Origin: Linanthus parryae
Taxonomy: Eukaryota > Streptophyta > Magnoliopsida > Ericales > Polemoniaceae
Length of the DNA: 64,000 bases
Direction of reading: 5' to 3'
NCBI GenBank assembly: GCA_023055425.1
Contig: JALGPY010000003.1
Location: 73,259,491-73,323,490 of the forward strand
In this document: piece after piece, positions 23,476 to 48,385 of the stretch
Position numbering within the stretch: the stretch's first letter is position 1
Layout: each line of letters begins with the position of its first letter
Made by a program: the position numbers and the translations under genes
The notes under the pieces: model-generated
Told to the model about the DNA's origin: nothing
Database searches by the model: none
Seen by the model: the letters and a program-made list of their open reading frames with translations, nothing else

Positions 23476-24622
23476 TCATGCGGCCCTTCTCAATCTCATT
23501 GGAAGGACAATCTTTCTCGAAAGAGTGATTCCATGCGACATGGGCAAGAATCCCTTCTTGGAATCTTGCATGTTGAACCGATTCAACACATTGTCTATAT
23601 ATGTACTTTGACTTAGGCCTAGCAGCTTCCTCGATCTATCGCTATAGATCTTGATACCAAGTATATAAGATGCATCCCCTAAGTATTTCATTAAGAAACA
23701 CTTTCCTAGCCAATTTCACTGATTGCAGCATGGGAATGTCGTCTCCAATGAGTAGTATGTCATCCACATACAAGATCAGAAATACAACAGAGCTCCCACT
23801 AACCTTCTTGTAGACACAAGACTCATCTTCGTTCTTGATGAAGTCAAAATCTTTGATTTCTTCATCAAAACGTTGATTCCAACTCTTAGAAGCTTGATTC
23901 AATCCATAAATGGATCGATCCAACTTACATACTTTATTTGCATGCTATGGATCCACAAAATCCTCAGGTTGTGTCATGTACACATCCTCGAGGAGGTTTC
24001 CATACACAAATGTTGTTTTGACATCCATCTTCCAAATCTCATAGTCGTAGTAAGCTGCAATAGCAAGTAGGATTCGAATGGATTTGGTCATCGCGACTGG
24101 TAAAAAGGTTTCATCATAGTCTATAACTTGAATCTGTCTGAATCCTTTCACCACCAATGGGCCCTTAGAGGTAATCACATTACCATGCATGTTGGTTTTC
24201 TTCTTGAAGACCCATTTACACCCAATGGGCTGCGACCCTTGGGGTGGTTCCACCAAAGTCCATACTTTGTTGGTATACATGGATTCCATTTGAGATTCTA
24301 TGGCTTTACGCCACTTCTGAGAGTCCGGACCTTTCATGGCCAGTCCATGGGTAGTAGGCTCATCATCTATGAGCAAGGCGTCACAAGACTCAGTCACGAG
24401 AAGTCCATATCTCTCTGTCTCCTGGCGCACTCTACTCGCCATACGAAGCACTTGTGTTACTTGAAAAGGTTCATCCACAACATCTTGTGGTTCCTGTTCA
24501 TGTTCCATAGTAGGATTAGTGTTTTGTGGTTCTTGAACTTGTTCAAGTTGTACAGTTCTCCAACTTGCTTCTTTAGAGACAAACTCTCTTTCTAGAAACA
24601 GGCCGGACCAGGCAACAAACAC
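23476..24622 (-). pseudogene. Copia B reverse transcriptase
   Basis: The N-terminal frame 24622-23945 holds CKWVFKKKTNMHG, AIAAYYDYEIWKMDVKT and YGNLLEDVYMTQPE, then a stop near 23945. The C-terminal frame 23923-23642 holds SIYGLNQASKSWNQRFDEEI and the catalytic LYVDDILLIGDD. A further frame, 23691-23476, gives YLGDASYILGIKIYSDRSRK. At least one stop and one shift separate them, so no intact RT is made. Confidence 0.92.
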
Positions 24623-24721
24623 TTTGTTCTCGGTTGGATTGTAGAAGTAATATCCCTTAGTTTCCTTAGGGTATCCAACAAACTTACACTTATCCGACTT
24701 AGGCTCGATCTTGTCTGATTG

Positions 24722-25453
24722 TTAACGTTTTACATAGACTTCGCAGCCCCAAATCCTCAAGAAGGACACTGTGGGACGCCTCCCACCCCACATATCATAT
24801 GGAGTATTCATGGCTGATTTGAATGGAACACGGTTAATAGTGAAAGCTGCAGACAACAGAGCGTAGCCCCAAAATGATAATGGAATATCAGTTTGACACA
24901 TCATAGATCGAACCATGTCTAACATTGTTCGATTAGTCCTCACCGACACGCCATTCCATTGTGGCGTTCCTGGTGGAGTGAGTTGGGATAATATCCCACA
25001 CTCTCTAAGATAGTCGTCAAACTCTTGGCTCAAGTATTCTCCTCCACGATCTGATCGTAAAGACTTAATACTTTTTCCAAGCTGCTTCTCTACTTCATTC
25101 TTGAATTTTTTGAACTTTTCAAAGGATTCGGATTTGAACTTCATAAGATATACAAATCCATATCTACTGAAATCATCAGTAAATGTAATGAAGTAGACAT
25201 AACCACCCCTGAAAGGCGTGGAAAATGGTCCACATACATCAGTATGCACGAGAGCCAATTGCTCACTAGTCCTCTCACCTTTCTTATTGAGAGGGGACTT
25301 TGTCATCTTTCTTAATAACCAAGCTTCACATGTCTCATATGATTCAAAATCAAATGAGTCTAGAAATTCATCCTTATGGAGTCTAGATACACGTTTCTCA
25401 TTTATATGGTCTAGACAACAGTGCCATGGATAAGCATGATTTAAATCATTCAT
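24722..25453 (-). pseudogene. Copia B integrase with damaged catalytic and zinc sites
   Basis: Open over 243 codons. N-terminal zinc region WHCCLDHINEKR ... YETCEAW has lost the second Cys of CxxC (Trp instead). The core keeps HTDVCGPF and LRSDRGGEYLSQEFDDYL. The third catalytic residue in NGVSVRTNRTMLDMVRS is Val where copia integrases, including the copies at 47962 and 51378, have Glu (NGVSER). C-terminal part reads GYALLSAAFTINRVPFKSAM. An open frame with two functional sites lost suggests decay after insertion. Confidence 0.92.
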
Positions 25454-29813: not shown

Positions 29814-30226
29814 TCCAATAGTCTCACACTTGCACTAGAGCCAATCTGGTGCATCTCGTATGCCTATAGATCTACTGTACCCTTCATACGTTCGCTGCAC
29901 AAGTGGCTTTGTAAGTGGATCTTAAAGATTATCGTCTGTTGGAATCGTGCATATCTTCACATCTCCTCGATCGACAATCTCTCCAATAAGATATAATCTC
30001 CTGAGTATGTGTTTGGATTTCTGAAGTGAGATGGGTTCCTTGACTTGTGCAATCGCCCCAGTGTTGTCACAATACAACGAAATGGGATCCACTATACTAG
30101 GAACCACATCCAGGTCAGTGATGAACTTGTTAATCCAAACAGCTTCCTTCGCTGCACCCGATGCAACAATGTACTAAGCTTCAGTTGTAGAATATGCAAC
30201 TGTCTCATGGTTGGAACTCTTCCAGC
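29814..30226 (-). pseudogene. Copia A: LTR start, PPT and RNase H C-terminus
   Basis: 29814-29820 is the displaced LTR start (TATTGGA on minus), 29821-29836 the polypurine tract, and 29845-30226 RNase H coding for YCDNTGAIAQVKEPISLQKS and nearby segments, with stops. The gene is cut at CCAGC (30222-30226) by the gypsy insertion and resumes at 46288. Confidence 0.85.
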
Positions 30227-30835
30227 TGTGTACGAGAGAATCCTTTAGGGAGGACTCAATATACACCAAGAGAAGAGGATAAGAACACACGAGGAGTAGG
30301 GTTGTGTGTAGGGAGAGAGTAGACAATAGTACTGTATGAGAGAGAGAGACATAATTTTGGCAGCGCTTCCGCATATCTCAGGTGATTCGCCCTTGTATGG
30401 AAGGGTTATCGATCCTATATATAACGGAGAAAGTGACCGTTGTAGTGGGTTAATGCGCCCATTAATGGCGGCTTAATTAGCTTAACCACAACAGCACGTT
30501 CGTCCGCTTATATAGGAACCGTTACGCACGTCCTCCGCGTATACCGGAACCGTTATGAGGTTGACCGGGTTTATGGAGCTCGTGGCATAAATCTCTCAAA
30601 TCAGTTAATAAAGGTCGCGCGCGAGCTTGGTTGTCGCTCGCACGCGACAGGACTTACTCTAGCCTCCAAACCACTAAGTCCCTACAAGTCCCGTGTGGTG
30701 GTATGCGAGGGCCTTGTCTCGCAGCCCCCACGTGGATCAGCGCGGGTGGTGATCCAGTGTGTGTGGAGCACAGTTAGGTGTGCTGGATGATCGCCACGTG
30801 GCTAAGATCTGCTTGACTGGAAAGCACTATCTACA
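30227..30835 (-). repeat. 3' LTR of the Tat-like element, 609 bp
   Basis: Plus strand TGTGTACGAGAGAATCC to AAGCACTATCTACA. Differs from 45680-46287 by scattered substitutions (a few percent by eye), implying the insertion is not brand new. The minus-strand TATA core TTATATATAGG is at about 30412-30424. Confidence 0.92.
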
Positions 30836-30853
30836 TTAGCCCCCTTTCTGCGC
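30836..30853 (-). other. Polypurine tract of the Tat-like element
   Basis: Minus strand CGCAGAAAGGGGGCTAA immediately precedes the LTR start TGTAGATAG. Confidence 0.82.
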
Positions 30854-31574
30854 GTGAAGACACATAGCCGGATAGGCTTCAATGCGCAGGAACCAATGCA
30901 CGCGTCGCTACCACGCACCAATTTAAATACATGCAAAATCAGCCCCCGTGCGTGTCATTATGACCTAGAATCCCTAGAGTCGTGCCGTCTGTTCTTTTAG
31001 GGTTTTAGGCGTGACGTCAGCTTGTCTTGTGATTGCGCGATTCGACGGTGACGGTTGCGATTCGACTACTGAAAGGACCCGACTCCTCATTGTTCTTGAA
31101 TAAGTACTCTATGCCCTCCATTGTTACAAAGCATCACTTCTCTCTCTAAAGTGAATGGTACCCGGAAGCCTTCAAGAACAGATTCAAGTAATCAATCATC
31201 AGTTCTTCCTTGTCAATCGTCTCCTTCAACTTGCTTCACCAAAACAAGATTGGCTTTGCTAAATTCCATTAATGTACTCAAATATTCTTTGAACTGTCTT
31301 GGATCTATAAACCCATAGTTATTTGGGATATGTCGTTCATTGAGAACTGCAAAAGAGGCCCTTTTCTTAAACCCAGAACCGATCGAATTACCAGATTGTG
31401 ACGATTTTGAATGTAGAACTTCTGAAATTCTGAGCAATGTACACAAATTCTGAACTTCTAATCCCAGAATTGACCCCGGACGTTCATCTTCTTTGACAAA
31501 ACATAATTGCTTCCTGAAATTCAAACTGAAATTGTGTATATTTCTCCCCCATTTTTTTTTGCTCTTCTGCAAGA
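30854..31574 (+). other. Possible promoter and 5' UTR of the antisense PMD gene
   Basis: No long frame on either strand carries a known domain. A TTTAAATAC at about 30910-30918 could be a TATA element for the plus-strand gene. TTC-rich, A-rich sequence leads to ATG 31575. The assignment is positional only. Confidence 0.35.
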
Positions 31575-31639
31575 ATGGCCAAGACAAAAGGATCCAAACC
31601 CATTAAAGAGGCCGAAGAAATACCCATCTTCCCCAGACC

Positions 31640-33455
31640 TTGTGGCGAAAAGCCCCCTATTTGGGTGGAAAATATTTCTATCATTCTAGGGTTAAGGTGA
31701 AGAATCTACCGACTCCTGTTTCCTCCGGAGAATTGCGGACATTGACCCCGCCTGTCAATGCAGCCATGCTAGAGTTAATCGACTCCAAGGATGTGATTAG
31801 GTTAGGAGTTGAAAATGGGTTTTTCTCCCATACTGAAATTTCTACCCAAGCGTTTGTCCAAAAATTAGACTTCATGGATGAGTGGATCGACCATGTATTG
31901 ACCCACCACGCCATGGCATTGAACAATGCTGGTATTTATTTCGCAGTTCGTGCTATGAAGGGTGCTTCCGTGAAGTTGGATCCGTCCATGCTTCTAAACC
32001 TTATTTCTCGCTATTCACCTGCGACTCATACCTTCCACTTTGCTGAGTTCGAGCCTGCTCCCACTATGGAGGATGTGCACATGTTGTATGACCTTTCTCC
32101 CGTTGGTGAAGTGGATCCTCTGAGCCCTTTGAGGACTGATCCAGAACTTTCTCTATACAAGCAGATGGAGGAATGCTTGTCCGAGGGAAAGAAAATCTCC
32201 ACTCGTTGGACATCTGCGAAAGTTCTTCCTGACTGGCAGCTTGTTGATACTTCTGCGGAGAACACCTGGGGCAAATGGGTGCAATACTTCTTTCGCAACT
32301 ATGCGAATAGTAGTATCACCAAGAAACTTCTAGACAAGAACCCAAATGCGAAAAATTATGTAAATGGGAAAGGGTACCATCTAACCTTGTGCGGCTTCCT
32401 CTGTGCCTGGCTGTCAAGGTACCTGATCGATGGTCACCCTCATGATGGGGTTTTTTTATCATGTCCTTCCTCTTGCTGTCAAGTTGGCCCTCGTCCAGAG
32501 AGTCGCACTTGGCCCTCTGGTCTTGGGAACTTTATATCACAGATTGGACCAATTGGTAGTGGCGATCAAGGACTCTCGCGGTCGTCTTGATGTGCTGACT
32601 TATGTTAACATCGCATTCCTGACCATGTGGGTTTTTGAGCGATGGCCCTCCTATGCTCCTGTTCCTTCTAGGCCCAGCAAGTGGTGTGACCCAGGTTCGG
32701 AGGATGAACTTTCCAGTGGGAGAGCTGCTCGATGGTTTAGAACCAATCCTCCCAAGTGCACCTGGAGCCTGATATGCAATGACCGGAGCAAGTTTACAGC
32801 TAGGCCCTATGCCACGCGCATTGAGAATTTGCGATGGTTCCCGAAGCTGTATCCCACCAAATCTCTTGCTTTTTCAGAAGAGCTCCTTTTCGAAGGTCAT
32901 GAGCGCTTTCATGAGCGCTATCGCGAATTCTTATGCTGGTGTTTAAGGGGTTCTCTCCCTTCTCTTGCTGAGTATGTTCCTGAACTTACTCCTAGGTATG
33001 AAAGGATCACGGTCAACGTTGATCCAACTCGCGTCTCTCCCCAGTTTGGCTTTGATGCAGTGGCGCCTTCCGTTTGGCCTAGATCAATCGTGAGAGGCTG
33101 CTACAAGCGACTGTTGTCGGGCGAGTGCCAAACGATCTTCCGGAGCAACTTGCCCTTCGTTTAACCTTCAGGTGACCATGAAGGTCGCTTCTCCAAAAAT
33201 TGGATTGCTTACTGGACTACTCAGCAGGCCAGGTTCGAGACGCACTCGGCTCCTCAGCCCAGCAGAGCTCCTACAATCAAGAGGAATGCCTTCCCATTCC
33301 GTCCTAATTGCAGTTTGGATGATTCTCAGTATGGATTCTACTCTTTTTTGGATCTTGACAATCACTTGTGCCCATCCACCATTCTTGAGGAGAAGATGAC
33401 CGCTGTTAGGGATGGTGCTTCGCATATTATCAAGTACAACAAAGTTTTTTCCAAG
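31640..33455 (+). other. PMD domain coding part (exon 1)
   Basis: Motifs in order: RLGVENGFFSHTEISTQAF, HTFHFAEFEPAPTMEDVHML, YHLTLCGFLCAWLSRYLIDG, then across the T7 shift YHVLPLAVKLALVQRVALGP and LVLGTLYHRLDQLV, FERWPSYAPVPSRP, and RVSPQFGFDAVAP. These match the PMD layout: 'TLEDV', an 'L-x-x-WLS-x-Y-hF' segment, 'PLA-x-x-LA-x-G-x-x-ALGPLVLASLYRGLD', and 'HRVARQFGFDQ'. After the TAA at 33162 the same frame continues (DHEGRFSKNWIAYW to IIKYNKVFSK) to the donor site at 33456, so the stop is likely a point mutation. Confidence 0.78.
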
Positions 33456-35455
33456 GTAAACAATTTCCTCTTTGCGTGCTAAGCTACTTTTTCTTGTTGT
33501 ATTGAAAGTTATTCCCCATTTACTTTTTTAGTGCTATCTGCGGATGTTCGCATCTGGAGGGCGCTCTAAATCGCTGATCAACTCCATCGTCACCGCGAGA
33601 AGACAGGGCGAGAAAATGCTTTTAACAAAGGGAATGTCTCCCCAGGTAGAGGCTCGGAGTCGCGAGGTAATAGATGCATTTGCTAACTCGCTGATAGACA
33701 ATAACCCGGCTCTGTCTCCTCCCAGGAATGCTCCGTCTCCTCCAGCAGATGTTGCCCCGAGGGCCAAAGACAAAAGCAGAAGGGTATTGCAATCTCCTCC
33801 CCTCCTAAGAGTGCTCCAAATTCATCTCTTGTGAAGTCTCTTGCTTCTAAGGACAAAGGCAAAGGTCGCATGCCAAGAAAAGTACAGAAAGAGCTCGCAG
33901 TTGAGACTTTTGTTCCTTTTGGTCAGGAGGAAGAGATGGATGAGAGGAGAGAAGTGAGAGGAAGAGATGATGATGAAGAAGAAAGAGGCGAAAGCGAAGG
34001 AGAAGAAGCAAGAGGTGAGATACAAGAAGAAGATTCGGAAGGTATCTCAAACAAACTTATCTTCTTCGTACTTTAGTTCTTGCAATAGTTGTTGAACAGT
34101 TTGTTCTTTTGCAGGTGATGACACAGAAACCATCGGCGGCCTCCTGGCCAAGAAAAAGAAGAAAACCAAGGGTTGTCACTCTGGCGTTTCCACCGAAGAC
34201 ATAGACGAAGATATCCTTGCTGAGTCTGAAAGAAAGACTGCAGAAGCCGCAGAGAGAAGGAGGAAGCGAAAAGAAGATGAGATCGAGCTCATAAAGAGGA
34301 GAAGTTTGGAAGAACAGCATGTTGATGACTTGGTGGAGCAAGTTGATGATTTAGATGCGACTGCTTTGGAACAAGCTCAAGAGGACTTTGAGGAAATCGC
34401 AGGTGGAAAACAAGGTGAGATTTTTAACCTTGATGTGACTTGCCAAGAAGTGATTACTGGTGCGTTAAAGCATGTCTTATCCAAAGCTGATATTCGCCGA
34501 TGGCTAGTAGGCAAGTGTGGTGAACCCTCAGGTAATCATTCAAGTAATGTTTGTAAACCAGACTTAGTAACCCAATCATCATCGTAACGAGTTTCTTCGC
34601 ACCCCAGATCACGCTCACCTTAAAGATGTGCTTAATGAAGATACCCTAGTTGTATATGGTGTCGCATATTTAACATATGATGAAGGTGCTGCAATCCCAC
34701 CTAAGTGTGGAGGTGCCCGCTTTTGATCTATTAAAATAACAAAACACTGTTTAATACAAGTTACCTCACTATTTTCCTGTCTTGTATTGCAGGCGATGCT
34801 GAAGAGGATGTGCCGGAGCGAAGGAGTTAGTCAGCCTCCTACATCTTATGCTCCAGAGCAAAGCCCTTACGTTGAGAAGCCTGTCGCAGCTACTGAGTAT
34901 GCAGGAGAGCCTTTGGAGTAATATAATTAAGATATCTGATGATATCGAAGCCGACACCGTTCTAAGAGAGGAAGACACTGATGCTGCAGTTGAGGAAATG
35001 GAAACAGATGGTGCTGGAGATGAAGTTCATGAAAATGAACAAGTCATGGAAGACACAGCATCGCACGCAAATGTTGATGTCCAAATGAATGCTCCCGAGC
35101 CACAAGAGCCCCTCGCAGCCGAAGAAGTTCCTGGCCAAGCAACAGCTGCCACTATTGCTGTTCCTTCAACAGAGGTAGAGCTTTTAGAGGTTCCCCAAGC
35201 ATGGAGTTTTTGGAGCTCGCAAGTTGGAGCTGCTGTAGAACCTGTTACGGCCTATACTCTTCCCAGGAACTACGATGAGCTCGAGCTCGCAGCTGACAGA
35301 CGAGCAATGGAGCGAGGAAAGACTTCAGCTTTCCCAAGAATGCGCATTCCCTCTTTGCGTGAAATCATTGAAGTGACTTGTATGTTATCATTCTTCGTAT
35401 TCTACATCCTTGTTTTTAAAGCTTTCACGCTCTAAACTTGAATTGACTTGATCAG

Positions 35456-35931
35456 GAATGAAGCAAGCTGATGTGGACTGGCTGGTTCATATGTGCCTCT
35501 CATACCCCTGGTCATTCGCGAGATCTCTGGAGATAGAGCCATATGACAGGAGGCTTTTCGTGACTGAAGCCATCTGGATTCTGGTGCAACTATCTGTGGC
35601 CACTCCTGCGACCATTTCTCCTCACAGTGCACAGCTGCTTTTCAGCACATGCAAAGGGCTTCAAGCTAAAGTTCAAGGCAAGCTGGGCTTCGGGTATCTC
35701 CTCAACAGGATCACCAAAATTCTCGCAACTGTGAGTTTAAAGCGCGGCTACCATAACCTCGCATCTGAAAGGCGGAAGGTAGAGGAACAAAGGCAGAAGG
35801 CTGAAGAAGCTGTCAACCTCTTTCATGCGATGAACGCCAAGTATAAACAGCTGAAGCGAGAAGTGGACCAAGCAAAAGAGATGTCACTCTCGTTTTCTCC
35901 AGAGGACCCTTTGATCAAGGATTTGTTTTAG
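35456..35931 (+). other. Last exon of the antisense PMD gene
   Basis: After the acceptor TTGATCAG at 35455 the frame reads MKQADVDWLVHMCLSYPWSF, a globular segment with EAIWILVQLSVATPATI, then a helical tail SERRKVEEQRQKAEEAVNLF and KQLKREVDQAKEMSL likely to form a coiled coil. It ends at TAG 35929-35931 and is uninterrupted, unlike the upstream exons. Confidence 0.65.
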
Positions 35932-36919
35932 AAACAAAATATTATTGTAATGGTAGTGTTTCTCCCCCTTTTTTTATCTAGAACTCTATGTCCCGTTTTG
36001 CCCTTTTGAGGATTTGCACAAATATCATGATGCGTATCAATTATGACGTCACATAGTGACGTATCTGCCTTGATTTTTGCTCTAATGATTTATTAGATAA
36101 GCACGATTTCCTTGGGAAGCCCATCCTTATTATGACCTTCCGTCATTAATTAGGGCGTGCCACCGAATCGTCATAGCCTTTAGTAGGGTAATTGAATTTT
36201 ACCTCTTTTGAGACGTAAGTAATTGATTCTTACCCGTTTTCCAAGCTTTGTTGAATCAGCGAGGGAACTGAAGAGTCCCCCTAAGGTCTATATAAACCCT
36301 GCCTCTTGCTGCTTGGGTTCTTAATCCCAAAATGTAGCTTGCCATGAGTCCTTACGACTGCTGGCCTCATTGCTTGTCTTTTGTTGAGTCATGGGAATTT
36401 CCAGTTGTGAAATATGAGTTTGTGCCTTGTGCCATAGAAATAGGTTGCAAGATCTTCTTTATAAATCTTATTGTTCTTCATGATTGCTTTGAAGAAGATA
36501 TAGACAATACCTCATGCTTCTACGAAGATTCTTCTTCGTCTATTTTGTTTGCAGTTCATATCTCTGGCTTCCTTCCGGCGAGGTACAGTTCCATACTGAC
36601 CTTTTTACCGACTCGGAATGGAGTGTTTCTCCTCTAGCTTTCCTGGAGGAGAATTATTTGCCTCCACGTTCTTGAACAAGGTTTGACGAGCCATGGCGCT
36701 CGCCTCTTTGGACAATAAGCTTTCTGCCCCGGGAGCTGTTCTCCACTTATTCTTCACCACCGCATCCGCCTGGACATGGGGTTCATCTGGCACATCTCTT
36801 GGGCAGAAGACCAGTAAAGAGCCTTGTTCAGATATAGGACCTCGACAATAGCGTCGCATAGCTTTTGTTAGCATTTGTAGGCCGATCATTTTATAGTAAG
36901 AATTTTCTTAGTATGAGCT
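35932..36919. other. 3' region between the PMD gene and the tandem array
   Basis: Short frames exist on both strands (36344-36637 plus; 36605-36889 minus, with ADAVVKNKWRTAPGAESLLS), but none has a recognised domain. Part of the long noncoding 3' region of the element. Confidence 0.4.
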
Positions 36920-37680
36920 TTTGCCTGTAAGCAGCTATCTACACAGATAAGTTGCTAGTCATTTTCACTGTTAATGAAACGTGCTTTAGCTCAGTATGAA
37001 CTTTCGCTTGTAAGCTGCTATCTAGACAGATAAATTGTAAGTCATTTTTACTGTTAATGAAATGCACTTTAGTATTTGCTGTTCTTGTTTGATACAACAA
37101 ATTGTAATATCGCATGCGTGTTGGCTATAAAACACGTTATGTTTCTTTCGCCTTTTGCATTTGGATGTTCGCCTGAATAATTCTTTATTTCAAGCTTGAT
37201 AAATTTTGCATTCGCACAGGGCATTGCTGCTATAGCTTGCTATCTAAACAGATAGGCTTGCAGACCAGTTAAGATCGTGATTAAATATTATTACTATCTG
37301 AGCAAATAGGCTTGGATCGCACAAAGGCGTTTATCATAATTGCTGCTATCTAAGCAGATAGGCTTTTGGATCAGTTAAGATCATATATCACGGCTGCTAT
37401 CTACGCAGATAGGCTTTTAGATCACTTAAGATTGTTTTTGAACATTGCTGCTATCTCGCCAGATAGGCTTTGGATCGCATAGGATCATACATTATGGCTG
37501 ATATCTAGGCAGATAGGCTTTTAGATAACTTAAGATCGCATTTGAACATTGCTGCTATCTCGGCAGATAGGCTTTGGCTCGCATAAGATCGCGTATTATA
37601 GCTGCTATCTTGGCAGATAGGCTTTTAGATCACTTAAGATCGCATGTGAACATTGTTGCTATCTCGGCAGATAGGCTTTT
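36920..37680. repeat. Dimeric tandem array built on TATCTNNGCAGATA
   Basis: Eleven copies of a near-palindrome, GCTATCTNNGCAGATAGGCTT and variants, at about 36933, 37016, 37239, 37297, 37343, 37394, 37450, 37500, 37553, 37605 and 37660. From 37340 on, spacing alternates about 51 and 55 bp. Two unit types alternate, one followed by TTTTAGATCACTTAAGATCG, the other by TTTGGATCGCATAAGATCG, giving a dimer of about 106 bp. The first two copies sit in a separate pair of about 85-bp units (CTTTTGCCTGTAAGC... / CTTTCGCTTGTAAGC...). Such arrays are known in the 3' region of Tat/Ogre-type elements. Confidence 0.88.
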
Positions 37681-37740
37681 GTTGTAAATGAGTAGAGAAG
37701 TAGATAGATGTCAAGAGATGACTAAGGTAATAAAATTCTT

Positions 37741-37815
37741 CTCATATGGGAGAATTCTTTCATTAAAATCACCCTCATATGGGAGAGGCAAGATTACAAG
37801 TTCCTCATATGGGAG
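37741..37815. repeat. Three copies of CTCATATGGGAG
   Basis: The 12-mer is at 37741-37752, 37774-37785 and 37804-37815, spaced 33 and 30 bp, between the tandem array and the integrase stop. It contains an NdeI-like CATATG palindrome (E-box form). Confidence 0.85.
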
Positions 37816-37898
37816 GAAACAACGCATGAATCTATCAGAGTAATTAGACATACATTTCAATAGACATTTGAATCCGATCTATGTAAAGAGAGAGAGTT

Positions 37899-39143
37899 TT
37901 AAGGATAATACTTTTTAATCCAGCGCATATTGATCGGACTTGGGATTGTGGCAGTCCCATGAAGCCTCTGTATTGTGCAGTAACCACAGTCAAAGACCTC
38001 TTTAACTTCGAACGGTCCCTCCCAATTAGCTGCGAACTTTGGATGGGATGCCTCCCACATGCAATGATCTGAAGCGCGCAAGACCAAGTCCCCGACCGCG
38101 GAATCTCGATGTTGGAATGTTTTGTTGTATGCGCGAGCGATCCTCTCCTTGTACCGCTTGTTAGCCCGCTTAGCTTGCTCTCGCTTCTCCTCCAACAAGA
38201 TCAAGTCGTGGTCGCGTTGATTGTCATATAATTCATGAAAGGCCAATCTCGCAGACTTGATTTTTACCAACGCCGGTACAACAGCTTCAGCTCCATAGCA
38301 TAGAAGGAACAGGGAGACTCCTGTGCGAGTCCTCGGCGAAGATCGATATGCCCATAATGCTATGTTCAAAGAATCGGCCCATTTCTTGTGATCGTGTGCG
38401 ACCATCTTGCTCAGAATTCTTAGTAGTGTCTTGTTGGTTGCTTCTGCTTGACCATTCCCTTTCGGATAATAAGGAGTGGAACAGACCTGCCTTATGTTGT
38501 ACTCTGCTAGTTTTGCGGCTACTTGTCGATTTACAAAGGGCGTGCCATTATCCGAAAGGATTGTGTTGGGGATTCTGAACCTGTATATGATGTTTTCTTG
38601 AACGAAATTCACCACTGCGAGCGCATTAGCTGTCTTGAGCGGTATTGCCTCTACCCACTTAGTAAACAACTCAGTCGTAGTCAGGATGAACTGGTTCCCA
38701 TGTGAGGCCGGTCGAATGGGGCCAACAAAATCTAGAGCCCGAGTGTGGAATGGCCATGGCGTACCTAATGCGTGTAGGTCTACGGCAGGGGCATGTACGA
38801 GGTTGCCCTTAAATTGACATTTCTGGCATCTCCTTACTTTGGTGCGAAAATCTTCCTCCATTGTGGGCCAAAAATAACCAACTGTGAGGAGCTGTCTGCA
38901 TAGCTTTGCGCCCCCTAGATGCTCTACTTGGTGAGATAGATCCATCACCTCTTGCACTTCTTTGTTATCTAGGCATCGAAGTAGATTACCCTCTTGACCC
39001 CTTCGCCAGAGTATGTTTTCCTGTACCACGTATCGAGCCGCCTTTCTTTTCAGTTTCTCGGCTTCTTTCCTTTGCTCAGGCTCGATTCCTTTTGTGAGAA
39101 AGTCGAAGAGTGGCTTTCTCCAGTCCGTGTCATCATCGACCAA
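37899..39143 (-). CDS. Integrase of the Tat-like element
   Basis: Open for 414 codons. The N-terminal linker is WRKPLFDFLTKGIEPEQRKE; the zinc region is LLRCLDNKEVQEVMDLSHQVEHLGG then VGYFWPTMEEDFRTKVRRCQKCQ, with two His and CxxC. The catalytic core has ALDFVGPIRP (Asp), TILSDNGTPF (Asp) and YPKGNGQAEATNKTLL (Glu), so the DDE triad is complete. The C-terminal part GDLVLRASDH ... KFAANWEGPFEVKEV ... MRWIKKYYP is the GPY/F-like module of gypsy integrases, ending the polyprotein. Integrase inserts cDNA with the 5-bp duplication seen here. The frame upstream is broken in the preceding zinc-like module. Confidence 0.93.
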   Translation of the reverse strand: MVDDDTDWRKPLFDFLTKGIEPEQRKEAEKLKRKAARYVVQENILWRRGQEGNLLRCLDNKEVQEVMDLSHQVEHLGGAKLCRQLLTVGYFWPTMEEDFRTKVRRCQKCQFKGNLVHAPAVDLHALGTPWPFHTRALDFVGPIRPASHGNQFILTTTELFTKWVEAIPLKTANALAVVNFVQENIIYRFRIPNTILSDNGTPFVNRQVAAKLAEYNIRQVCSTPYYPKGNGQAEATNKTLLRILSKMVAHDHKKWADSLNIALWAYRSSPRTRTGVSLFLLCYGAEAVVPALVKIKSARLAFHELYDNQRDHDLILLEEKREQAKRANKRYKERIARAYNKTFQHRDSAVGDLVLRASDHCMWEASHPKFAANWEGPFEVKEVFDCGYCTIQRLHGTATIPSPINMRWIKKYYP

Positions 39144-39515
39144 GTGATTGTTAGAGAATCCTTGATCAATGCGCAGCTTTCACAATTCCCTTGAATTATC
39201 GCAGCAGCCCTTGACATGTCCGGCCAAGGAATTCCATATCTTTGGGCTTTTCGATAGATCGACACCTCACCTTCTCCAAACGTGTGCTGGTGAATCTTTT
39301 CCAATAACGCTTGCCCCTCCTGCTGCGAGACGCATCGCATAAGTATTCCTCCTGGGCCTTTTTAGTAGAGGGCGTTATCATGTATACAATATCCCTTAGT
39401 GGATGCCCAGTTCTCTTTGCTCGTCCCCTCAGCAATTGCATGCAATATCGGTTTTCTCCAATCTTCGGCATCCATGGACTCATCCTTGCATGGGTTCTTT
39501 GTCAATGCCGGTGAC
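39144..39515 (-). pseudogene. Extra zinc-finger-like module upstream of integrase, frameshifted
   Basis: Frames 39340-39050 and 39483-39196 together resemble the pre-integrase module found again at 39143-38800: DWRKPI-like start, LLEKIHQHTFGEG, YRKAQRYGIPWPDM and CESC correspond to VMDLSHQVEHLGG, CRQLLTVGYFWPTM and CQKC. An in-frame stop near 39364 and a shift near 39270 break it. The left edge carries TSD GTGAC (39511-39515) of the solo LTR. Confidence 0.6.
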
Positions 39516-40934
39516 TGTAATATCCCGAGTCACTAAATTTGTTTAAATAAGATTTATTTTTGATAAAATGTGATTGTGAGTTTCTAAGTGTCATTAGAAG
39601 CTATTTTTTTAGTAGAATTTATTGCCAATATTGAATTATAATCCCAATTATGTAAAAAAAATGTTATTTCACGTGGGGTGTATTTATGTAGATAAATTAC
39701 TTTGGTGATCCTTCAAATAGATAAAAAAAAAGGAGAAGGATGTGAATTTGTTGTCCAATAAAGTTTACTTCTGAACTAAGGTATTGAATTATAGTAGTAC
39801 GGTACTTCATCTACAGTAGTCAACCTAATGTAATTATGTATAGTGTGGTGTTAACATATTATTGGGAGACATTTCTTTTTTTTCCTTGTGTCTAAAAAAG
39901 AAGTTTAGAAAACTTTGATACCATCTTTATCTAGTCGGCTACTGCAGTGAAACTTATGAGGTCTTATCTTTGTTCTTGAGACATATGTTTGGGGAGAGAG
40001 AAATGGTGTGTCTTGGTGAGGATTGGGAATTGGTGAGTCTTGAGGAAGACATGGGTTGAGCCAGATTTTAAAGTGAGGACTGGAGGAGTAAGAGACGGGG
40101 GAAAAGATAGCTTGGGTTTGAGTTGTTAGTTCGAGCAGTGATGAGAGAGAGAGAGAGGACATAAGAGATGGCGAAGGGTAGTGGTAGCCATAGTTAAAAG
40201 AGTTGTATTATATAAACTAATACCATGAGAGGTTAGGGTTAACTGGAAGCTATGTATTTGGGTATACTTTGCCGTGGAAATTAATTTCAAGTACTTGGAC
40301 TTGGTCCGGTCAATCGCAGAGGCTCTAGTTTGTTTCGAATTCGGTTAAGGTATGGAAAATCTAATTTTTGAGGTTTCTACAATTACAGCCGATAATTGTA
40401 TATTTTGTATGAGTGATTTTTACAGCTTTATAATTATACGGTTATTGACCGGTGATTAATAAATCACGGTGGTTGTGTATTTGGTGTCACATGTTGATGT
40501 GCGACAATTGATTGTTGTAATAAGTGAATTTTAGATTGTTATGCTAATGATTAGGTAGTGCCTATTGAGTTGTTTGGCTCAACCCCTATATCTTACAGGT
40601 TGAGTCGGAACGCGACTGGATCGCGGACTAGTGGTTAAAAAGTAGATTTTCAGCTAAAATTATTGTTTTTAGCTATTTTTTGTGAAAGTTTGAACTTTTC
40701 AGTCGAATCGCGATATTTTATAAAAAATGACATTTTTGATGAGTTGGTGTAATTTTAAATAATTGAGTCACGTACCAGTTTTTCAGAATTTTGATTTAAT
40801 TATTGTTTTGGAGGATTGTGTGTCCTGCTGGTTGAGGTTTGAACGTCTGAAAGTGTAATACGGGTTAACATTAAATTGTAATTTTTATCGTAAATCGATA
40901 AGTTATATATTAAAAGTGTGACCGAGTCGTTACA
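39516..40934 (+). repeat. Solo LTR inside the Tat-like pol, TSD GTGAC
   Basis: Begins TGTAATATCCCGAGTCAC and ends CCGAGTCGTTACA, 1,419 bp, flanked by GTGAC at 39511-39515 and 40935-40939. Removing it and one TSD restores the pol frame from the RNase H end into the next segment (EVRMS then PALTKNP), confirming the boundaries. The TGTAAYAYCCCG start is common in plant gypsy chromovirus LTRs. A (GA)n run at about 40144-40158 lies inside. No coding capacity. Confidence 0.9.
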
Positions 40935-40939
40935 GTGAC

Positions 40940-41886
40940 ATTCGGACCTCTATCGAGATTCTCGCAGGGCATTTGTCTGTACTCACTTTAGATCCCAGGG
41001 TGGCTAAAGCATCAGCTCTAGGCGTGTGTTCGTACCTAACATCGCAGAATTGTTGTACCTGCTTCTGCACCAAAGTCCGATAGGGTAACAAATTTACCTC
41101 TTTCAATCCGTACTCGCCTGAAGCCTGTTTGACGATTAACTTAGAATCCCCCATAACCGTCAAATTGCTTACTTCCAGTGCCCTGGCTGCACGGAGGCCC
41201 GCAATGAGAGCCTCATACTCCGCTTCATTGTTGGTCATTAAGAAATCAAGTTTTGTGGACATTTGGATGACCTCCCCATCTGGTTTAGTCAAAACGATTC
41301 CAATTCCTCCACCTATCCTTGTTGACGATCCATCAAAATGAAGCGTCCTGTAAGGTAACTCGACTGCATAAATCTCGGGTCCTTCTAGTTCCTCTTCGAT
41401 CATGGGCTCATAGTTGTTATCCGGGAACTGTGCCAGAAGATCCACCACTGCTTGCGATTTGATTGCTCGTGGACGCACACACGTGATGTGGTATTGGGAA
41501 ATGGTCATATACAATTTTGCCAATCTTCCTCCGGGAGAGGTGTGAGTGAAGAGATACCGTATGGGGTCGCTCTTTGTAACCACCACAACTTTGTGCGAGG
41601 CGAAGTAGTGTTTTAACTTTTCTATTACGAAGAATAAGGCAAGACAATGGCGTTCGATATCTGTGTACCTTGATTCATCTGGCTGCATTATGCGAGAAAT
41701 ATAGTAAATTGGCCTTTCTTGCCCTTCATATTCTTGAGCCAAAAGCGCCCCTATAGACTTCTTTGTCGACGTCAGGTACAACAGAAGAGACGATCCAAGC
41801 TGCGGTGCGATCATTACCCTTTGCGATGTCAGCAGGTCCTTTAGCTTCCCGAACGCGACCTCATGTTCCTCTGTGCAATTGTACAC
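40940..41886 (-). CDS. Tat-like RT connection domain and second (archaeal-type) RNase H
   Basis: First unit: EHEVAFGKLKDLLTSQRVMI, RPIYYISRIMQPDESRYTDI and KVVVVTKSDPIRYLF, the gypsy RNase H in a form lacking several catalytic acidic residues. Second unit from about residue 185: LHFDGSSTRIGGGIGIVLTK (Asp), TNNEAEYEALIAGLRAA (Glu), TVMGDSKLIVKQASGEYG (Asp) and RADALATLGS (Asp), a complete RNase HI site of the archaeal-like type. Double RNase H is a hallmark of the Tat clade and of a few oomycete elements. The frame is open until the solo LTR insertion at 40935. Confidence 0.9.
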
Positions 41887-41921
41887 AACATTCTTCTTGA
41901 GAAGATCGCTGAAGCAGAAGG

Positions 41922-43031
41922 TTATTTATGCGATTGCTGGGATGAATCTCCGCAGGTAAGAAAATTTCCCCAAAAACGTCTTAGAGCATTTTGATTGTGT
42001 GGCGCCGTCATGCTTGTGATAGTTGATACCTTCGCGGGGTCAGGCTCGATCCCATGGCGATGTAATACGCATCCCAAGAACTTCCCTGAAGTCACTCCAA
42101 ATGCACACTTCATGGGCTTCATCTTTAGCTGGAAACTCCTGCACCTTTCAAATACTTTACCCAGGTCCCCCAAATGGTCAGCTTCCTCTTTGGACTTGAA
42201 AACCAAATCATCAACATAGATCTCCACTTCGTGGTGCATCATGTCGTGGAATAGAGCCATCATTGCTCGCTGATAGGTCGCGCCTGCGTTCTTGAGCCCG
42301 AACGGCATAACCGTGTAATTAAAGACTCCCACCGGTGTGATGAACGCGGTTTTGCGTGCATCTTCAGGGTCCATTTTGATCTGGTTGTACCCACTGAAAC
42401 CATCCATGAAGCTGAACGTTCGATGACCCGCAGTAGAATCCATGAGCAGATCTATGTTGGGTAACAGAAAATCATCCTTGGGACAGAAGCGGTTGAGATC
42501 TCTGAAGTCTACACAAATGTGAAGCTGTCCATTCTTTTTTACCACAGGCACAATGTTGGCCAACCAGGTGGGATGGTGATTCGGCTCGATAAACTTGGCA
42601 GCCAACAACTTGACAATTTCTTGCTTAATTTTTACATTTATCTCCGGCCTGAAACTTCTTGTACTTTGCTTTACTGCTTTAGATCATGGGATGACATCTA
42701 ACCTGTGCATAGTGATGCTCGCGTCCAAACCAGGCATTTCATCGTATTCCAACGCAAACACATCTTAGTACTCAGTCAGCAGTTGCAGCAATCTTGCCTC
42801 TTCGTCTCTTGTGAGGTCTCCACTTTAAAAGACGGGCCTCTTCTTTTCTTCGCTTGGGCTCAGAAACAGTTCATTCAGCTCTTGCTTCTGGTGCCTTGGC
42901 TTATCCTCCATGCATTCATGTGCTTCTTTCAGCTTTTCCTCTGAAAACTCGGATGTTGGTTTGACATGCTCGATTTGATTGATTTGCTCAAGGATATCCC
43001 CATGCTCGGATGGGGGTACCCCCGCGCACCT
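41922..43031 (-). pseudogene. Reverse transcriptase of the Tat-like element
   Basis: The open part 42608-41922 reads LAAKFIEPNHHPTWLANIVP, CVDFRDLNRFCPKDDFLLPN, FMDGFSGYNQIKMDPEDARK, the catalytic EIYVDDLVFKS, and GKFLGCVLHRHGIEPDP, the usual gypsy RT blocks. Upstream toward 43031 the same frame carries MPGLDASITMHRLDVIP and FRPEINVKIKQEIVKLL but has stops at 42684-42686, 42765-42767 and 42825-42827. A shift near 41922-41886 separates RT from RNase H. RT copies the element RNA from the tRNA primer. Confidence 0.92.
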
Positions 43032-44048
43032 TCATATGCGATGGCATTTCTTTCCATTGGAGTAGAAACTTTCTATCTCCTTGGCTGCGAGATTATGTTT
43101 TACCACTCTTTTCAGAGTGTACACGTTCTTTCTTTGGTAGGCAACCGGCGGTGCCTCTTCGCGTGTGGAAAACTTTTCCTTAGCATCCTCCCTTGTCACC
43201 ATCACTCCCGCTGGTGATTGATCCTTGATGTCTTCCCATCGAGGAAAAGGAGTCGGATTAAACGGACCCGGCGTTTGCTCGTCCGCCATTTCGGTAAACC
43301 ACACCGCTTCAGTGAGGTGCGCCTCGTTTGGATTGATGGGATTTACCGAAGCCGGTATCTCCACTACTCTGTCGTTCCAGATGGCCTTCATCACCTGGTG
43401 AGCTGTTGAGGGAACCGCGTCAAAACGGTGAATCCAAGCTCGCCCTATGATCATGTGATACGTAGTATTCGCATCGATGACATAGAATTTGGCTGAGCAC
43501 TTGATCTTCCCTATCTGAACGCCCAAACGAATCCATCCTTTCGTCATCCTAGAATCACTCCCGAATCCCATCAGCGGGGAGGGGAGTCTGACAATCTTCT
43601 TCTTCGAGATTCCTGCCAATTTTAGATTGTTAAGCGAGAACACGTTGACGGCTGCTCCACCATCAACGAATTCCCTCTTAAATTCGACATCATTGATCAC
43701 CGCTGTTACATATAAGGGCTTCTGGTGGCCCGAGTCCGTCTTCTTATCGCTTGCGGAGAAGGTCATAACCTTTTCCGTAGAGCAAGACGCCCTAATAACT
43801 TTTCCATTCGAGACCACGATATCATCCTCGAAGTCTTCTGCCACCCTTAGAATCGAATTTTTCATTTCTTTCTGGCAATTCTCCGAAAAGTTCATTTCGT
43901 CGAAGAACTTGCTGAACCCGTGCGACCCCATCATTCGATTGGCACGCTCGTCCTCCGTGTCTATGTTGTATTCCTCATCATTGTGAATTTCAGCAATGAT
44001 AGGCAAGCCATCTTCCGCAATCTCTTCAAGATCCATAATCGCAATCAT
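43032..44048 (-). CDS. Aspartic protease region of the Tat-like element
   Basis: Open for 338 codons. The protease core is LYVTAVINDVEFKREFVDGG with AAVNVFSLNNLKLAG (Asp-Gly-Gly-Ala in place of the common D-S/T-G-A), then LGVQIGKIKCSAKFYVID and TYHMIIGRAWIHRFDAVPST. These are the flap and hydrophobic-GR segments of Tat-type proteases. The tail after about residue 250 is a linker to RT (VYTLKRVVKHNLAAKEIESF). It cuts the polyprotein. Separated from gag by stops at about 44049-44117. Confidence 0.85.
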   Translation of the reverse strand: MIAIMDLEEIAEDGLPIIAEIHNDEEYNIDTEDERANRMMGSHGFSKFFDEMNFSENCQKEMKNSILRVAEDFEDDIVVSNGKVIRASCSTEKVMTFSASDKKTDSGHQKPLYVTAVINDVEFKREFVDGGAAVNVFSLNNLKLAGISKKKIVRLPSPLMGFGSDSRMTKGWIRLGVQIGKIKCSAKFYVIDANTTYHMIIGRAWIHRFDAVPSTAHQVMKAIWNDRVVEIPASVNPINPNEAHLTEAVWFTEMADEQTPGPFNPTPFPRWEDIKDQSPAGVMVTREDAKEKFSTREEAPPVAYQRKNVYTLKRVVKHNLAAKEIESFYSNGKKCHRI

Positions 44049-44117
44049 GGCTACTTATTTTCCTTTCGGCTCTTGCTCCGCGTGGGCTGGCAGCGGATTG
44101 TTTCACACGTCTTGTCT

Positions 44118-44471
44118 CTAATCGCTGACAATAAACTCGCCGTCCTTCATTTTTTGGCTCACCATGTACCTGAGTTTCTTGAAGTCAGCTGTGGGGTGCA
44201 TAATTTTCCCGTGGCATTCGCACCACTTCGGGTCCCTCATCATCTCCTTAGAGGGTATCCTTTCAAGCGGAGGCAAGATTCCATCCTTACGCCACTGTTT
44301 GCATAAGTCGATCACTTCCTCTATCGAGCATGGCAGAGGCGGCGCATCTGAGTTGGTAACCCTGGGCTGCTTGTGCGGCGAAACTGCATTAACCTCAGGT
44401 TCGCGCCCCCTCTTATAGCTAAATCTTCCAATCTTGAAATTCGTTCCCCCTTTAGGGTAGTTCAGGGGCAT
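44118..44471 (-). CDS. Gag C-terminal region with a Cys/His box
   Basis: Encodes PPLPCSIEEVIDLCKQWRKD, then KWCECHGKIMHPTADFKKLR, a C-x-C-H ... H pattern like the CxYHxxxGHxTxxC box at the end of Tat gags. It overlaps the upstream gag frame by 20 bp in another frame (44452-44471), where ...HAPELP stops and KGGTNFKIGRFSYK continues. Either a one-base indel or a normal frame change between gag and pro; the indel is more likely because the sense continues smoothly. Confidence 0.7.
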   Translation of the reverse strand: MPLNYPKGGTNFKIGRFSYKRGREPEVNAVSPHKQPRVTNSDAPPLPCSIEEVIDLCKQWRKDGILPPLERIPSKEMMRDPKWCECHGKIMHPTADFKKLRYMVSQKMKDGEFIVSD

Positions 44472-45639
44472 GCTTCTTCTTCTGCCTTTCCACTATAGGC
44501 TCTATGTTTATCATGCATTCAATCAGCTTTGAAAAGGTAGGAGTCTGTAGGTTGATCAGCATACCTTTGTACTCATCTCGCATGCGTTGTAGACATATCT
44601 CCACGAGCCTGCCCTCGAGCACTTCGTCTCTGCTCTCCAAGGATTTGTCCCTGAATTTCTTGATGAATGTGACTCCATCTTCCTCATGCTTCTGGTACAT
44701 ACAAGAGAGATGAATCATTGTAACCTTCTCTTCCACCTGGAAGAATTTGGTGTAGAACTTCTGAACCATGTCATCCCAAGTTTTAACAGATCCGGCCTCC
44801 AACGTTCTATACCATTTGTAGGCCACATTTCCCAAAGATTTTGGGAACTCGCGCATCAGCAACTTGGGATCAGCCCCGTATGGTCCCATCACATCGATGA
44901 AACGCATGACGTGCTCGTGGGCATTCCCGTTCACATCTTCAAAATTTTCCCACTTAGGAGCCTTATACCCTGCGGGGTTAGGCATGAGATAGATCTCACG
45001 TGGGATAGGTGGATCGTTGTCTACCTTTGGAATAATGGTGTCTGCAAACGGCTGATTGGCCAAGAAGGTCTCTATGCGCCGCTGCAGCGACGTCATACAT
45101 TCCAGTGCACTTCCCCCAGCAGCAGGAGGAAGGGTTGTTGTAGCCGGCGGGGACACATATGCTGCGGTCGGGCTAGGGGTGTAAGTCACGTTGCCCAGCA
45201 TTGCCGGCGGAGGAGGCAAGGGGTATTGTGAAGAAAGGTTGGGTGCCACAGTTGGTGGTTGAGGAATATGTGTGGTAAGAGGCAGTATCTGGGCTGTCTG
45301 CCCCTGAACAGAGGGTAATTGCACCATTGCTGGTGGGGTTTGCGAATTAGGGTTAGGTGGTGTCGGTACCACTCCAGTCCCCTGAGTGGTAGAGGTTCCC
45401 CCTCCCTGAGAGATGGCAGTGCCCGCTGTACGATTCGGAGCAAGGGTTACCAGAATGGCCATTATACGTTCCATCTGTGCGGATTGAGCCTGAAGGGCCT
45501 TTCCCTGATTCTGGATGGTGGCGTTTAGAGCCTCCAACGTCGGAGTCCCACTGGCGACCACAGAGGCGTGACGAGTCTCCTTTCCTAAGGTTGTCTCCGT
45601 GGAGGGTGATCTGTTACTGACATCATCTTTGTGAGACAT
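44452..45639 (-). CDS. Gag of the Tat-like element
   Basis: Open for 395 codons from MSHKDDVSNRSPS at 45639, 17 bp after the primer site. A Pro/Thr/Gln-rich region occupies residues 70-175. The retrotransposon gag domain follows at about 215-360: GYKAPKWENFEDVNGNAHEH, KSLGNVAYKWYRTLEAGSVK, TWDDMVQKFYTKFFQVEEKV and KHEEDGVTFIKKFRDKSLES. Gag forms the particle. No stop inside; the end joins the Cys/His-box frame by a shift. Confidence 0.88.
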   Translation of the reverse strand: MSHKDDVSNRSPSTETTLGKETRHASVVASGTPTLEALNATIQNQGKALQAQSAQMERIMAILVTLAPNRTAGTAISQGGGTSTTQGTGVVPTPPNPNSQTPPAMVQLPSVQGQTAQILPLTTHIPQPPTVAPNLSSQYPLPPPPAMLGNVTYTPSPTAAYVSPPATTTLPPAAGGSALECMTSLQRRIETFLANQPFADTIIPKVDNDPPIPREIYLMPNPAGYKAPKWENFEDVNGNAHEHVMRFIDVMGPYGADPKLLMREFPKSLGNVAYKWYRTLEAGSVKTWDDMVQKFYTKFFQVEEKVTMIHLSCMYQKHEEDGVTFIKKFRDKSLESRDEVLEGRLVEICLQRMRDEYKGMLINLQTPTFSKLIECMINIEPIVERQKKKHAPELP

Positions 45640-45656
45640 GGTTGCTTGCAGTGGTT

Positions 45657-45679
45657 CGATTCACGTCGGGTTCACCAAA
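45657..45679 (-). other. Primer-binding site of the Tat-like element
   Basis: The minus strand right after the LTR reads TTTGGTGAACCCGACGTGAA; the plus strand therefore contains GTTCGATTCACG then GGGTTCACCA, looking like the 3' end of a tRNA with its terminal CCA. I cannot name the tRNA with certainty. Confidence 0.65.
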
Positions 45680-46287
45680 TGTGTACGAGAGAATCCTTTA
45701 GGGAGGACTCAATATACACCAAGATCAGAGGATAAGAACACAGGAAGAGTAGGGTTGTGTGTAGGGAGACAGTAAGGCAATAGTACTGTATGAGAGAGAG
45801 ACAGAATATTGGCAGAGCTTCCGCAAATCTCAGGTGATTCGCCCTTGTATGGAAGGGTTATCGATCCTATATATAACGGAGAATGTGAGCGTTGTAGTGG
45901 GTTAATGCGCCCATTAAGGGCGGCTTAATTAGCTTAACCACAACGGCACGTTCGTCCGCGTATATAGGAACCGTTACGCACGTCGTCCGCGTATACCGGA
46001 ACCGTTATGAGGTTCACCGGGTTTATGGAGCTCGTGCCATAAATCTCTCAAAGCAGTTACTAAAGGTCGCGCGTAAGCTTGGTTGTCGCTCGCACGTGAC
46101 AGGACTTACTCTAGCCTCCAAACCACTAAGTCCCTACAAGTCCCGTGTGGTGGTATGCGAGGGCCCTGTCTCGCAGCCCCCACATGGATCAGCGCGGGTG
46201 GTGATTCAGTGTGTGTGGAGCACAGTTAGGTGTGCTGGATGATCGCCACATGGCTAAGATCTGCTTGCCTAGAAAGCACTATCTACA
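45680..46287 (-). repeat. 5' LTR of the Tat-like element, 608 bp
   Basis: Plus strand TGTGTACGAGAGAATCC to AAGCACTATCTACA, followed by TSD CCAGC (46288-46292). The minus-strand TATA core TTATATATA is at 45868-45876. Partner of 30227-30835. Confidence 0.93.
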
Positions 46288-47950: not shown

Positions 47951-47961
47951 TGAGCATGGCC

Positions 47962-48312: not shown

Positions 48313-48385
48313 AAGTCATCTCACCTTTCTTATTGAAAGGAGACTTAGTCATCTTTCCCAATAAACAAGATTCACATGTCTCATA

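What the first reader, a model, noticed from the sequence alone, without database searches (positions are those of the whole stretch)
31575..35931. Multi-exon plant mobile domain gene carried antisense inside a Tat-like gypsy element
Seen: a plus-strand gene between the integrase and 3' LTR of a minus-strand element, with PMD motifs (GFLCAWLSRYLIDG, PLAVKLALVQRVALGPLVLG, RVSPQFGFDAVAP) and five well-formed GT-AG introns of 73-80 bp. Established: Tat-clade elements such as Grande/RIRE2 can have antisense extra ORFs, and PMD proteins include MAIL1/MAIN, which act in silencing. Inference: the element carries a spliced accessory gene, possibly one that counters or borrows host silencing. Introns survive because the gene is transcribed opposite to the genomic RNA. 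This copy is broken, so an intact sibling is what would matter.
Basis: partly seen in the sequence, partly recalled or inferred. Interest (0 to 1): 0.85.

Follow-up and report, generated by a model that had tools for sequence, protein, structure and literature searches.

The report
Spliced antisense gene inside plant retrotransposon
A large plant jumping element carries, on its opposite strand, a now-broken extra gene of a family related to plant gene-silencing proteins; the gene looks as if it was read through five introns, which such elements normally cannot keep.

Summary
Confirmed: 30227-46287 is a minus-strand Ty3/gypsy element. Its LTRs are 94.8% identical, with TSD CCAGC and an empty-site paralogue in the window. 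RH and a second RNase H precede INT, as in the angiosperm Tat clades (Ogre, Retand). Between INT and the 3' LTR lies a plus-strand gene, 31575-35931. Two pieces of its first exon each pass Pfam's cut-off for PF10536 (plant mobile domain, PMD) and abut in order on 13 of the 15 homologues that match both. Five GT-AG introns (73-80 bp) follow. The gene's four lowest-GC windows overlap four of them, and all five rank in the top 16 of 784 GT-AG pairs by splice-site score. Reading frame alone does not single them out. The gene is broken (about five frame changes, two stops), but no more than expected since insertion, so the parent gene was probably intact.
Not new: PMD genes in Ogre elements, antisense extra ORFs in Tat elements and the counter-silencing idea are in print. 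Apparently new: an antisense PMD gene with several introns, shielded from loss because the genomic RNA is the other strand. Function is inferred, not shown. No sibling copy or RNA data could be reached.

The parts
30227..46287 (-). Whole Tat-type Ty3/gypsy element, TSD CCAGC on both sides (includes a nested 1.4-kb insertion)
   Evidence: Self-comparison, LTR ends, TSD and empty-site paralogue
30227..30835 (-). 3' LTR
   Evidence: 94.75% identical to 45680-46287
45680..46287 (-). 5' LTR; primer binding site just inside, from about 45677 downwards (tRNA-Trp type by recall)
   Evidence: tRNA type recalled, not tested
44452..45660 (-). gag ORF, directly after the 5' LTR (no ORF1 before it)
   Evidence: PF03732 1.8e-6; ORF list
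43032..44054 (-). ORF in the protease position (no Pfam hit)
   Evidence: assigned by position
41925..42683 (-). reverse transcriptase
   Evidence: PF00078 3.7e-27
40933..41925 (-). RNase H followed by a second RNase H (aRH position)
   Evidence: PF17919/PF17917 then PF13456
37899..39179 (-). integrase
   Evidence: PF00665 8e-13, PF17921 1.3e-7
31575..33455 (+). Exon 1 of the antisense gene: start codon and plant mobile domain; broken by two frame changes and a stop
   Evidence: PF10536 on two pieces; collinear PMD homologues
33456..33531 (+). Intron 1 (76 bp, phase 0)
33532..34041 (+). Exon 2, broken by one frame change
34042..34114 (+). Intron 2 (73 bp, phase 1); a donor at 34015 scores slightly higher with the same acceptor
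34115..34531 (+). Exon 3, one open frame, with basic clusters resembling nuclear localisation signals
34532..34607 (+). Intron 3 (76 bp, phase 1), the weakest of the five by composition and acceptor
34608..34712 (+). Exon 4
34713..34792 (+). Intron 4 (80 bp, phase 1); a donor at 34686 scores higher with the same acceptor
34793..35379 (+). Exon 5, acidic, broken near its 5' end by two frame changes
35380..35455 (+). Intron 5 (76 bp, phase 1); the present junction reads as a stop codon
35456..35931 (+). Exon 6 with stop codon; ends in a long predicted helix (coiled-coil-like)
   Evidence: AlphaFold2 on the single sequence: helix 76-143, block pLDDT 87-91 over residues 111-140, whole model mean 63
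36910..37680 (.). Tandem-repeat arrays between the gene's 3' end and INT

Best explanation
A Tat-type (Ogre/Retand) Ty3/gypsy element carried an accessory gene on the strand opposite to gag-pol, between pol and the 3' LTR. The gene encodes an N-terminal plant mobile domain, a charged middle with nuclear-localisation-like clusters and a C-terminal long helix. It was transcribed rightwards from its own or an antisense LTR promoter (inferred) and spliced through five short introns (inferred from sequence). The introns persist because the genomic RNA, the template for reverse transcription, is the other strand, where they cannot be spliced (inferred). The protein most likely enters the nucleus and acts on the host PMD/PP7L-type silencing machinery, as decoy or recruiter, to tune the element's own transcription (inferred; about 0.3 likely). 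Shown here: element, position, PMD identity, intron-like segments, decay no greater than expected since insertion. The confidence below is for the element-borne, spliced, formerly working gene, not for the silencing role.
For: LTRs, TSD and empty site; gag, RT, RH, second RH, INT on minus; PF10536 on two separate pieces; 15 of 70 homologues match both pieces (14 of the 15 bear a PF10536 label), and in 13 of 15 the pieces abut in order; intron composition and splice scores; in nine exon pieces, chosen as open, codon usage of the element's gag-pol favours the proposed frame over shuffles (z 1.6 to 5.8); about 5 frame changes and 2 stops against 4.3-6.4 frameshifts and 4.1 (1-8) stops expected from LTR divergence K80 0.0494. 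Precedents: own-promoter antisense transcription and a nuclear protein in Grande (PMC7264820, passages); MAIN/MAIL1/PP7L complex (PMC7156037, passages).
Against: No sibling copy, transcript or dN/dS could be obtained. Frame-only scoring does not single out the introns (ranks 22, 19, 85, 422, 727 of 784), and the minus strand has almost as many frame-joining pairs as the plus strand (204 against 241). By splice score the best pair of all and the third best are not the proposed ones, though they share the acceptors of introns 2 and 4. By codon usage the proposed frame is best of six in only 5 of 9 pieces. Intron 3 is weak by composition and acceptor. Exons 2-6 matched none of the 70 homologues at E 1e-3, but these were selected with exon 1 and a length limit. 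The PMD model is too poor for a fold search (pLDDT 50.6, pTM 0.36), so nothing structural supports a function.
Confidence: 0.6

Rival explanations
1. Coding-dead passenger: the element once picked up a PMD gene with its introns in antisense orientation, and the gene has no role in transposition.
For: Introns and antisense orientation are what a DNA-level capture of a host gene would leave; Neumann et al. question whether divergent extra ORFs have any function (PMC6317226, passages).
Against: Damage is no more than expected since insertion, so the frame was probably still open in the parent; PMD is recurrent in Ogre elements (57%) and PMD-A clades are exclusively gypsy-encoded.
Confidence: 0.2
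2. The locus works through antisense RNA: plus-strand transcripts pair with the genomic RNA, feed small-RNA silencing or limit transposition, and the protein matters little. This can coexist with the best explanation.
For: Proposed for antisense ORFs in PMC7264820 (passages); 175 PHAS loci at PMD genes in tea plant (PMC10673657, passages).
Against: Does not explain a frame of more than 1200 codons kept open with a PMD.
Confidence: 0.15
3. A separate transposon (for example a MULE that carries PMD) or a host gene is nested in the element and is not part of it.
For: PMD occurs in MULE transposases and host genes (PMC5418596, passages).
Against: Of the 25 inverted-repeat pairs listed (28 found, 12 nt or more) none brackets the gene; no long direct repeats flank it apart from the element's own LTRs; the pol-to-3'LTR position is a usual one for antisense extra ORFs. 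Short target duplications around the gene were not searched for.
Confidence: 0.08
4. The introns are not introns: only exon 1 is a gene and the rest is a set of chance or degenerate open frames.
For: Frame-only ranking is uninformative; exons 2-6 have no homologue among the 70.
Against: The four lowest-GC separate windows of the gene overlap introns 1, 4, 5 and 2; the five pairs rank 2, 4, 6, 12 and 16 of 784 by splice score; exons 2-6 read like a charged protein with a C-terminal helix.
Confidence: 0.12

Closest known systems
PMD extra ORFs of Ogre-lineage Ty3/gypsy elements (PMD-A1/A2; Neumann 2019, Ikeda 2017)
   Same: PF10536 protein encoded by a Tat-clade element with aRH before INT
   Different: Here antisense and split by five introns; the passages read do not mention introns in, or the orientation of, PMD ORFs. 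No ORF1 before gag here. Membership in PMD-A was not tested by a tree.
[quoted passage not shown]
   Same: Same place and orientation; own-promoter transcription and a nuclear protein reported for Grande; tandem repeats in the same region
   Different: Domain is PMD, not TRP28 (no PF04195 hit in the 8 pieces); no introns are mentioned for those ORFs in the passages read
HBZ and APH antisense genes of HTLV
   Same: Antisense gene expressed and spliced; HBZ and some APH proteins nuclear and acting on the virus's own transcription (PMC10186651, passages)
   Different: 3'-LTR promoter shown there; different protein (bZIP); works-like comparison only, no sequence comparison run
Host MAIN/MAIL1 (PMD-C) and PP7L complex
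   Same: Same Pfam domain family
   Different: Host genes; no direct comparison with MAIN or MAIL1 was run
ORF3 genes of bdelloid rotifer LTR elements
   Same: Separate transcription units expressed from spliced messages (PMC5408684, passages)
   Different: The passages read name neither antisense coding nor PMD for them

Membership tests
Ty3/gypsy, Tat clade (Ogre/Retand) | Second RNase H (aRH) between RH and INT | tested here: met
   PF17919/PF17917 then PF13456 in one ORF upstream of INT; criterion from PMC6317226
Ty3/gypsy, Tat clade (Ogre/Retand) | LTRs with TG..CA ends, 5-bp TSD, gag-RT-RH-INT order | tested here: met
Ogre lineage proper | RT/INT phylogeny, and the gag-pro/pol intron | not tested
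   No reference RTs at hand; the RT looks Ogre-like by recall only; a ~350-bp stretch with stops lies between the protease-position ORF and RT
Plant mobile domain PF10536 | Score above the Pfam gathering cut-off | tested here: met
   35.9 and 38.4 bits against 34.9, each piece alone
PMD-A clade | Phylogenetic position among gypsy PMDs | not tested
   No labelled reference sequences available
Antisense aORF-3R class | ORF antisense to gag-pol between pol and 3' LTR | tested here: met
   INT ends 37899 on minus; gene 31575-35931 on plus; LTR ends at 30835
Spliceosomal multi-exon gene | RNA reads across the junctions | not testable with these tools
   No transcriptome available
Spliceosomal multi-exon gene | AT/T-rich GT-AG introns between coding segments | tested here: met
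   (intron 3 weak); the frame-only test was uninformative
MULE-borne PMD | Terminal inverted repeats around the gene | tested here: not met
   No bracketing pair among the 25 of 28 inverted repeats listed

The most novel reading that the evidence does not exclude
Some Tat-clade elements carry a true multi-exon nuclear gene whose introns are kept for good because it is coded opposite to the genomic RNA, and use its PMD protein to interfere with the host PMD/PP7L silencing complex. Introns would also let the element tell its accessory mRNA from its genomic RNA.
Probability: 0.25. Interest if true: 0.78.

Novelty: new variant of a known kind. Interest (0 to 1): 0.52.

Why it matters
A review dated December 2025 states that plant LTR elements generally lack introns, naming Ogre and EVADE among the exceptions (PMC12786077, passages). 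A five-intron antisense gene would be a different solution: full eukaryotic gene structure inside a reverse-transcribed element. An ORF scan with a 250-codon floor, as in PMC6317226 (passages), would see only its first exon in a working copy, so the C-terminal half of such proteins may be missed. It also gives a concrete candidate for the printed idea that TE-encoded PMD proteins counter host PMD silencing.

Tried and rejected
Siblings: PMD, INT and RT pieces against viral contigs, PMD piece and P0009 against genome contigs, P0009 against viral contigs, PMD piece against plasmids, most of the gene against phages: no relatives. First protein search, with the first PMD piece: none of 350 candidates at E 1e-3. 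PDB by sequence: only marginal matches, lowest E 0.14. AlphaFold of PMD homologue P0009: pLDDT 50.6, pTM 0.36, judged too poor, so no fold search was run. Nested MULE: no bracketing inverted repeats listed. Intron duplication: the five introns align poorly (46% mean column identity in a gapped alignment). Frame-only intron test: uninformative. Bacterial-type promoter scan: not suited to a plant gene. Of 70 homologues, 45 went into alignment A2 and 25 were left out, chosen by eye as matching the window piece weakly, briefly or not at all. Literature: the listings of nine searches showed no title on a multi-intron antisense gene in a plant LTR element; Steinbauerova et al. 2011, the key survey, was not read (its abstract is recalled only), and supplements were not open to me.
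Full report
The element. Self-comparison of the window gives the LTR pair 30227-30835 and 45680-46287, 94.75% identical. The LTRs end in TG and CA, the 5-bp direct repeat CCAGC flanks them, and the paralogous copy at 22775-25176 runs uninterrupted through the insertion point, which fixes the element's limits. On the minus strand Pfam finds gag, RT, RNase H, a second RNase H and INT in that order. A second RNase H between RH and INT marks the angiosperm Tat clades Ogre and Retand according to Neumann et al. (PMC6317226, passages). I could not run a phylogeny; my impression that the RT is Ogre-like, and the primer site tRNA-Trp-like, is recall. Gag starts directly behind the 5' LTR, so there is no ORF1 before it.

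The gene. Between INT (ending at 37899) and the 3' LTR (ending at 30835) the plus strand carries the gene 31575-35931. Two pieces of its first exon, taken separately, each pass the PF10536 cut-off of 34.9 bits: 35.9 and 38.4. A protein search with the first piece found nothing; one with the second piece gave one PMD protein (P0001, 31% over 80%), and a search with the two-row alignment gave 70, mostly from unnamed ENA contigs, with three proteins named Quercus suber and one Papaver somniferum. At E of 1e-3 the first piece matches 18 of 70, the second 42 of 70, and 15 match both, 14 of these with a PF10536 label. In 13 of the 15 the two pieces abut in order with 3 to 9 residues between them; in the other two (P0063, P0070) the matches overlap or leave a gap in the window. 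So the two pieces are one PMD interrupted by a frame change, not two chance ORFs. No later exon matches any of the 70 at that threshold; the candidates were limited to lengths near that of the exon 1 piece, so this is weak evidence.

The introns. Five GT-AG segments of 76, 73, 76, 80 and 76 bp separate six exons, the first in phase 0 and the rest in phase 1. Their GC is 0.32, 0.33, 0.39, 0.34 and 0.33; 76-mers of the joined exons average 0.48 and never fall below 0.342. The four lowest-GC separate 76-bp windows in the gene overlap introns 1, 4, 5 and 2 by 48 to 72 bases; intron 3 is covered by the window listed ninth. With a simple plant splice matrix, whose values I recalled, the five donors rank 4, 7, 2, 42 and 27 of 218, the acceptors 20, 1, 49, 2 and 10 of 347, and the five pairs 6, 2, 12, 4 and 16 of the 784 pairs that are 65 to 110 bases long. 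The pairs ranked first and third are not mine but share the acceptors of introns 2 and 4, so other donors are possible there. Against the introns, a score that uses only the open frame on both sides does not single them out (ranks 22, 19, 85, 422 and 727 of 784, introns 1 to 5); the plus strand has 241 pairs with at least 25 open codons on each side, more than any of 200 shuffles (largest 203), but the minus strand has 204. The copy is broken near introns 4 and 5, which lowers their frame scores. Codon usage trained on the element's own gag-pol favours the proposed frame over shuffles in nine of nine pieces (z 1.6 to 5.8; the pieces were chosen as open) but makes it best of six in only five of nine. 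I judge the introns real with about 0.8 probability.

Age and decay. LTR divergence is K80 0.0494 (11 transitions, 18 transversions in 607 sites, 2 gap events), or about 1.9-3.5 million years at rates of 1.3e-8 and 7e-9 (recalled). From that, 4.1 stops (95% range 1-8) and 4.3-6.4 frameshifts are expected in the 3.9 kb of coding pieces since insertion. I count about five frame changes and two stops by reading. The indel rate rests on two events, so the comparison is rough, but there is no sign that the gene was dead before insertion. A parent gene that kept more than 1200 codons open through earlier rounds of reverse transcription was probably under selection; this is inference.

Working. Exons 3 and 5 and the second half of exon 2 are acidic, and exon 3 has basic clusters that resemble nuclear localisation signals; the last exon ends in a long helix, predicted with fair confidence over about 30 residues from the single sequence. 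A model of a PMD homologue was too poor to search with. TATA-like strings lie on the plus strand at 30416 and 30509 in the 3' LTR and at 31306 and 31537; none is evidence of a promoter. The most economical account is a gene transcribed opposite to the genomic RNA, with introns that the genomic RNA shows only as reverse complements and so cannot lose. In Arabidopsis the PMD proteins MAIN and MAIL1 form a complex with PP7L needed for TE silencing (PMC7156037, passages), and a review suggests that TE-encoded PMDs may counter it (PMC8616336, passages). I place a decoy or recruiter role at about 0.3.

What is known. PMD was reported in 57% of Ogre elements (PMC6317226, passages), in gypsy consensus sequences of 10 species, or 40 without a copy filter (PMC9289625, passages), and as gypsy-only clades PMD-A1 and A2 (PMC5418596, passages). 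[quoted passage not shown] PMC11963269, parts 1-2 of 5 and passages). A review of December 2025 says that plant LTR elements generally lack introns, with Ogre and EVADE among the exceptions (PMC12786077, passages). Vicient and Casacuberta call for attention to antisense and spliced transcripts (PMC7264820, passages). In the nine search listings named under Tried and rejected I saw no report of a multi-intron antisense gene, but the key 2011 survey was not available. Hence: new variant of a known kind, of moderate interest until siblings or RNA are seen.

Noticed in passing
window 39516-40934 (minus): A 1,419-bp stretch between the second RNase H and INT begins TGTAAC, ends TTACA and is flanked by GTCAC on both sides: a nested insertion with solo-LTR-like ends.
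   Followed up: partly
window 47950-51367 and 51366-54783: Head-to-tail tandem duplication of 3.4 kb at 99.77% identity, much younger than the LTR element.
   Followed up: no
window 22775-25176 and 29817-30227 + 46288-48269: The element sits in a copy of a Ty1/copia-type repeat (RVT_2, rve and copia-gag hits in or next to the paralogous copy) that recurs across the window in both orientations.
   Followed up: partly
window 36910-37062 and 37339-37680: Two tandem-repeat arrays (83 bp; 104/54 bp) between the PMD gene's end and INT; [quoted passage not shown] PMC11963269).
   Followed up: partly
window 39050-39361 (minus): ORF just upstream of the INT zinc finger with a His/Cys pattern of its own (by eye) and no Pfam hit; possibly an extra finger-like segment.
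   Followed up: no
window 36288-36296 (plus): A clean CTATATAAA on the plus strand just past the gene's 3' end; matches to this TATA pattern are enriched in the window (10 against 2.6 expected).
   Followed up: no
window 2919-4364 (minus): A 482-aa stop-to-stop open frame with a gag domain (PF03732 8.9e-22) of another element.
   Followed up: no
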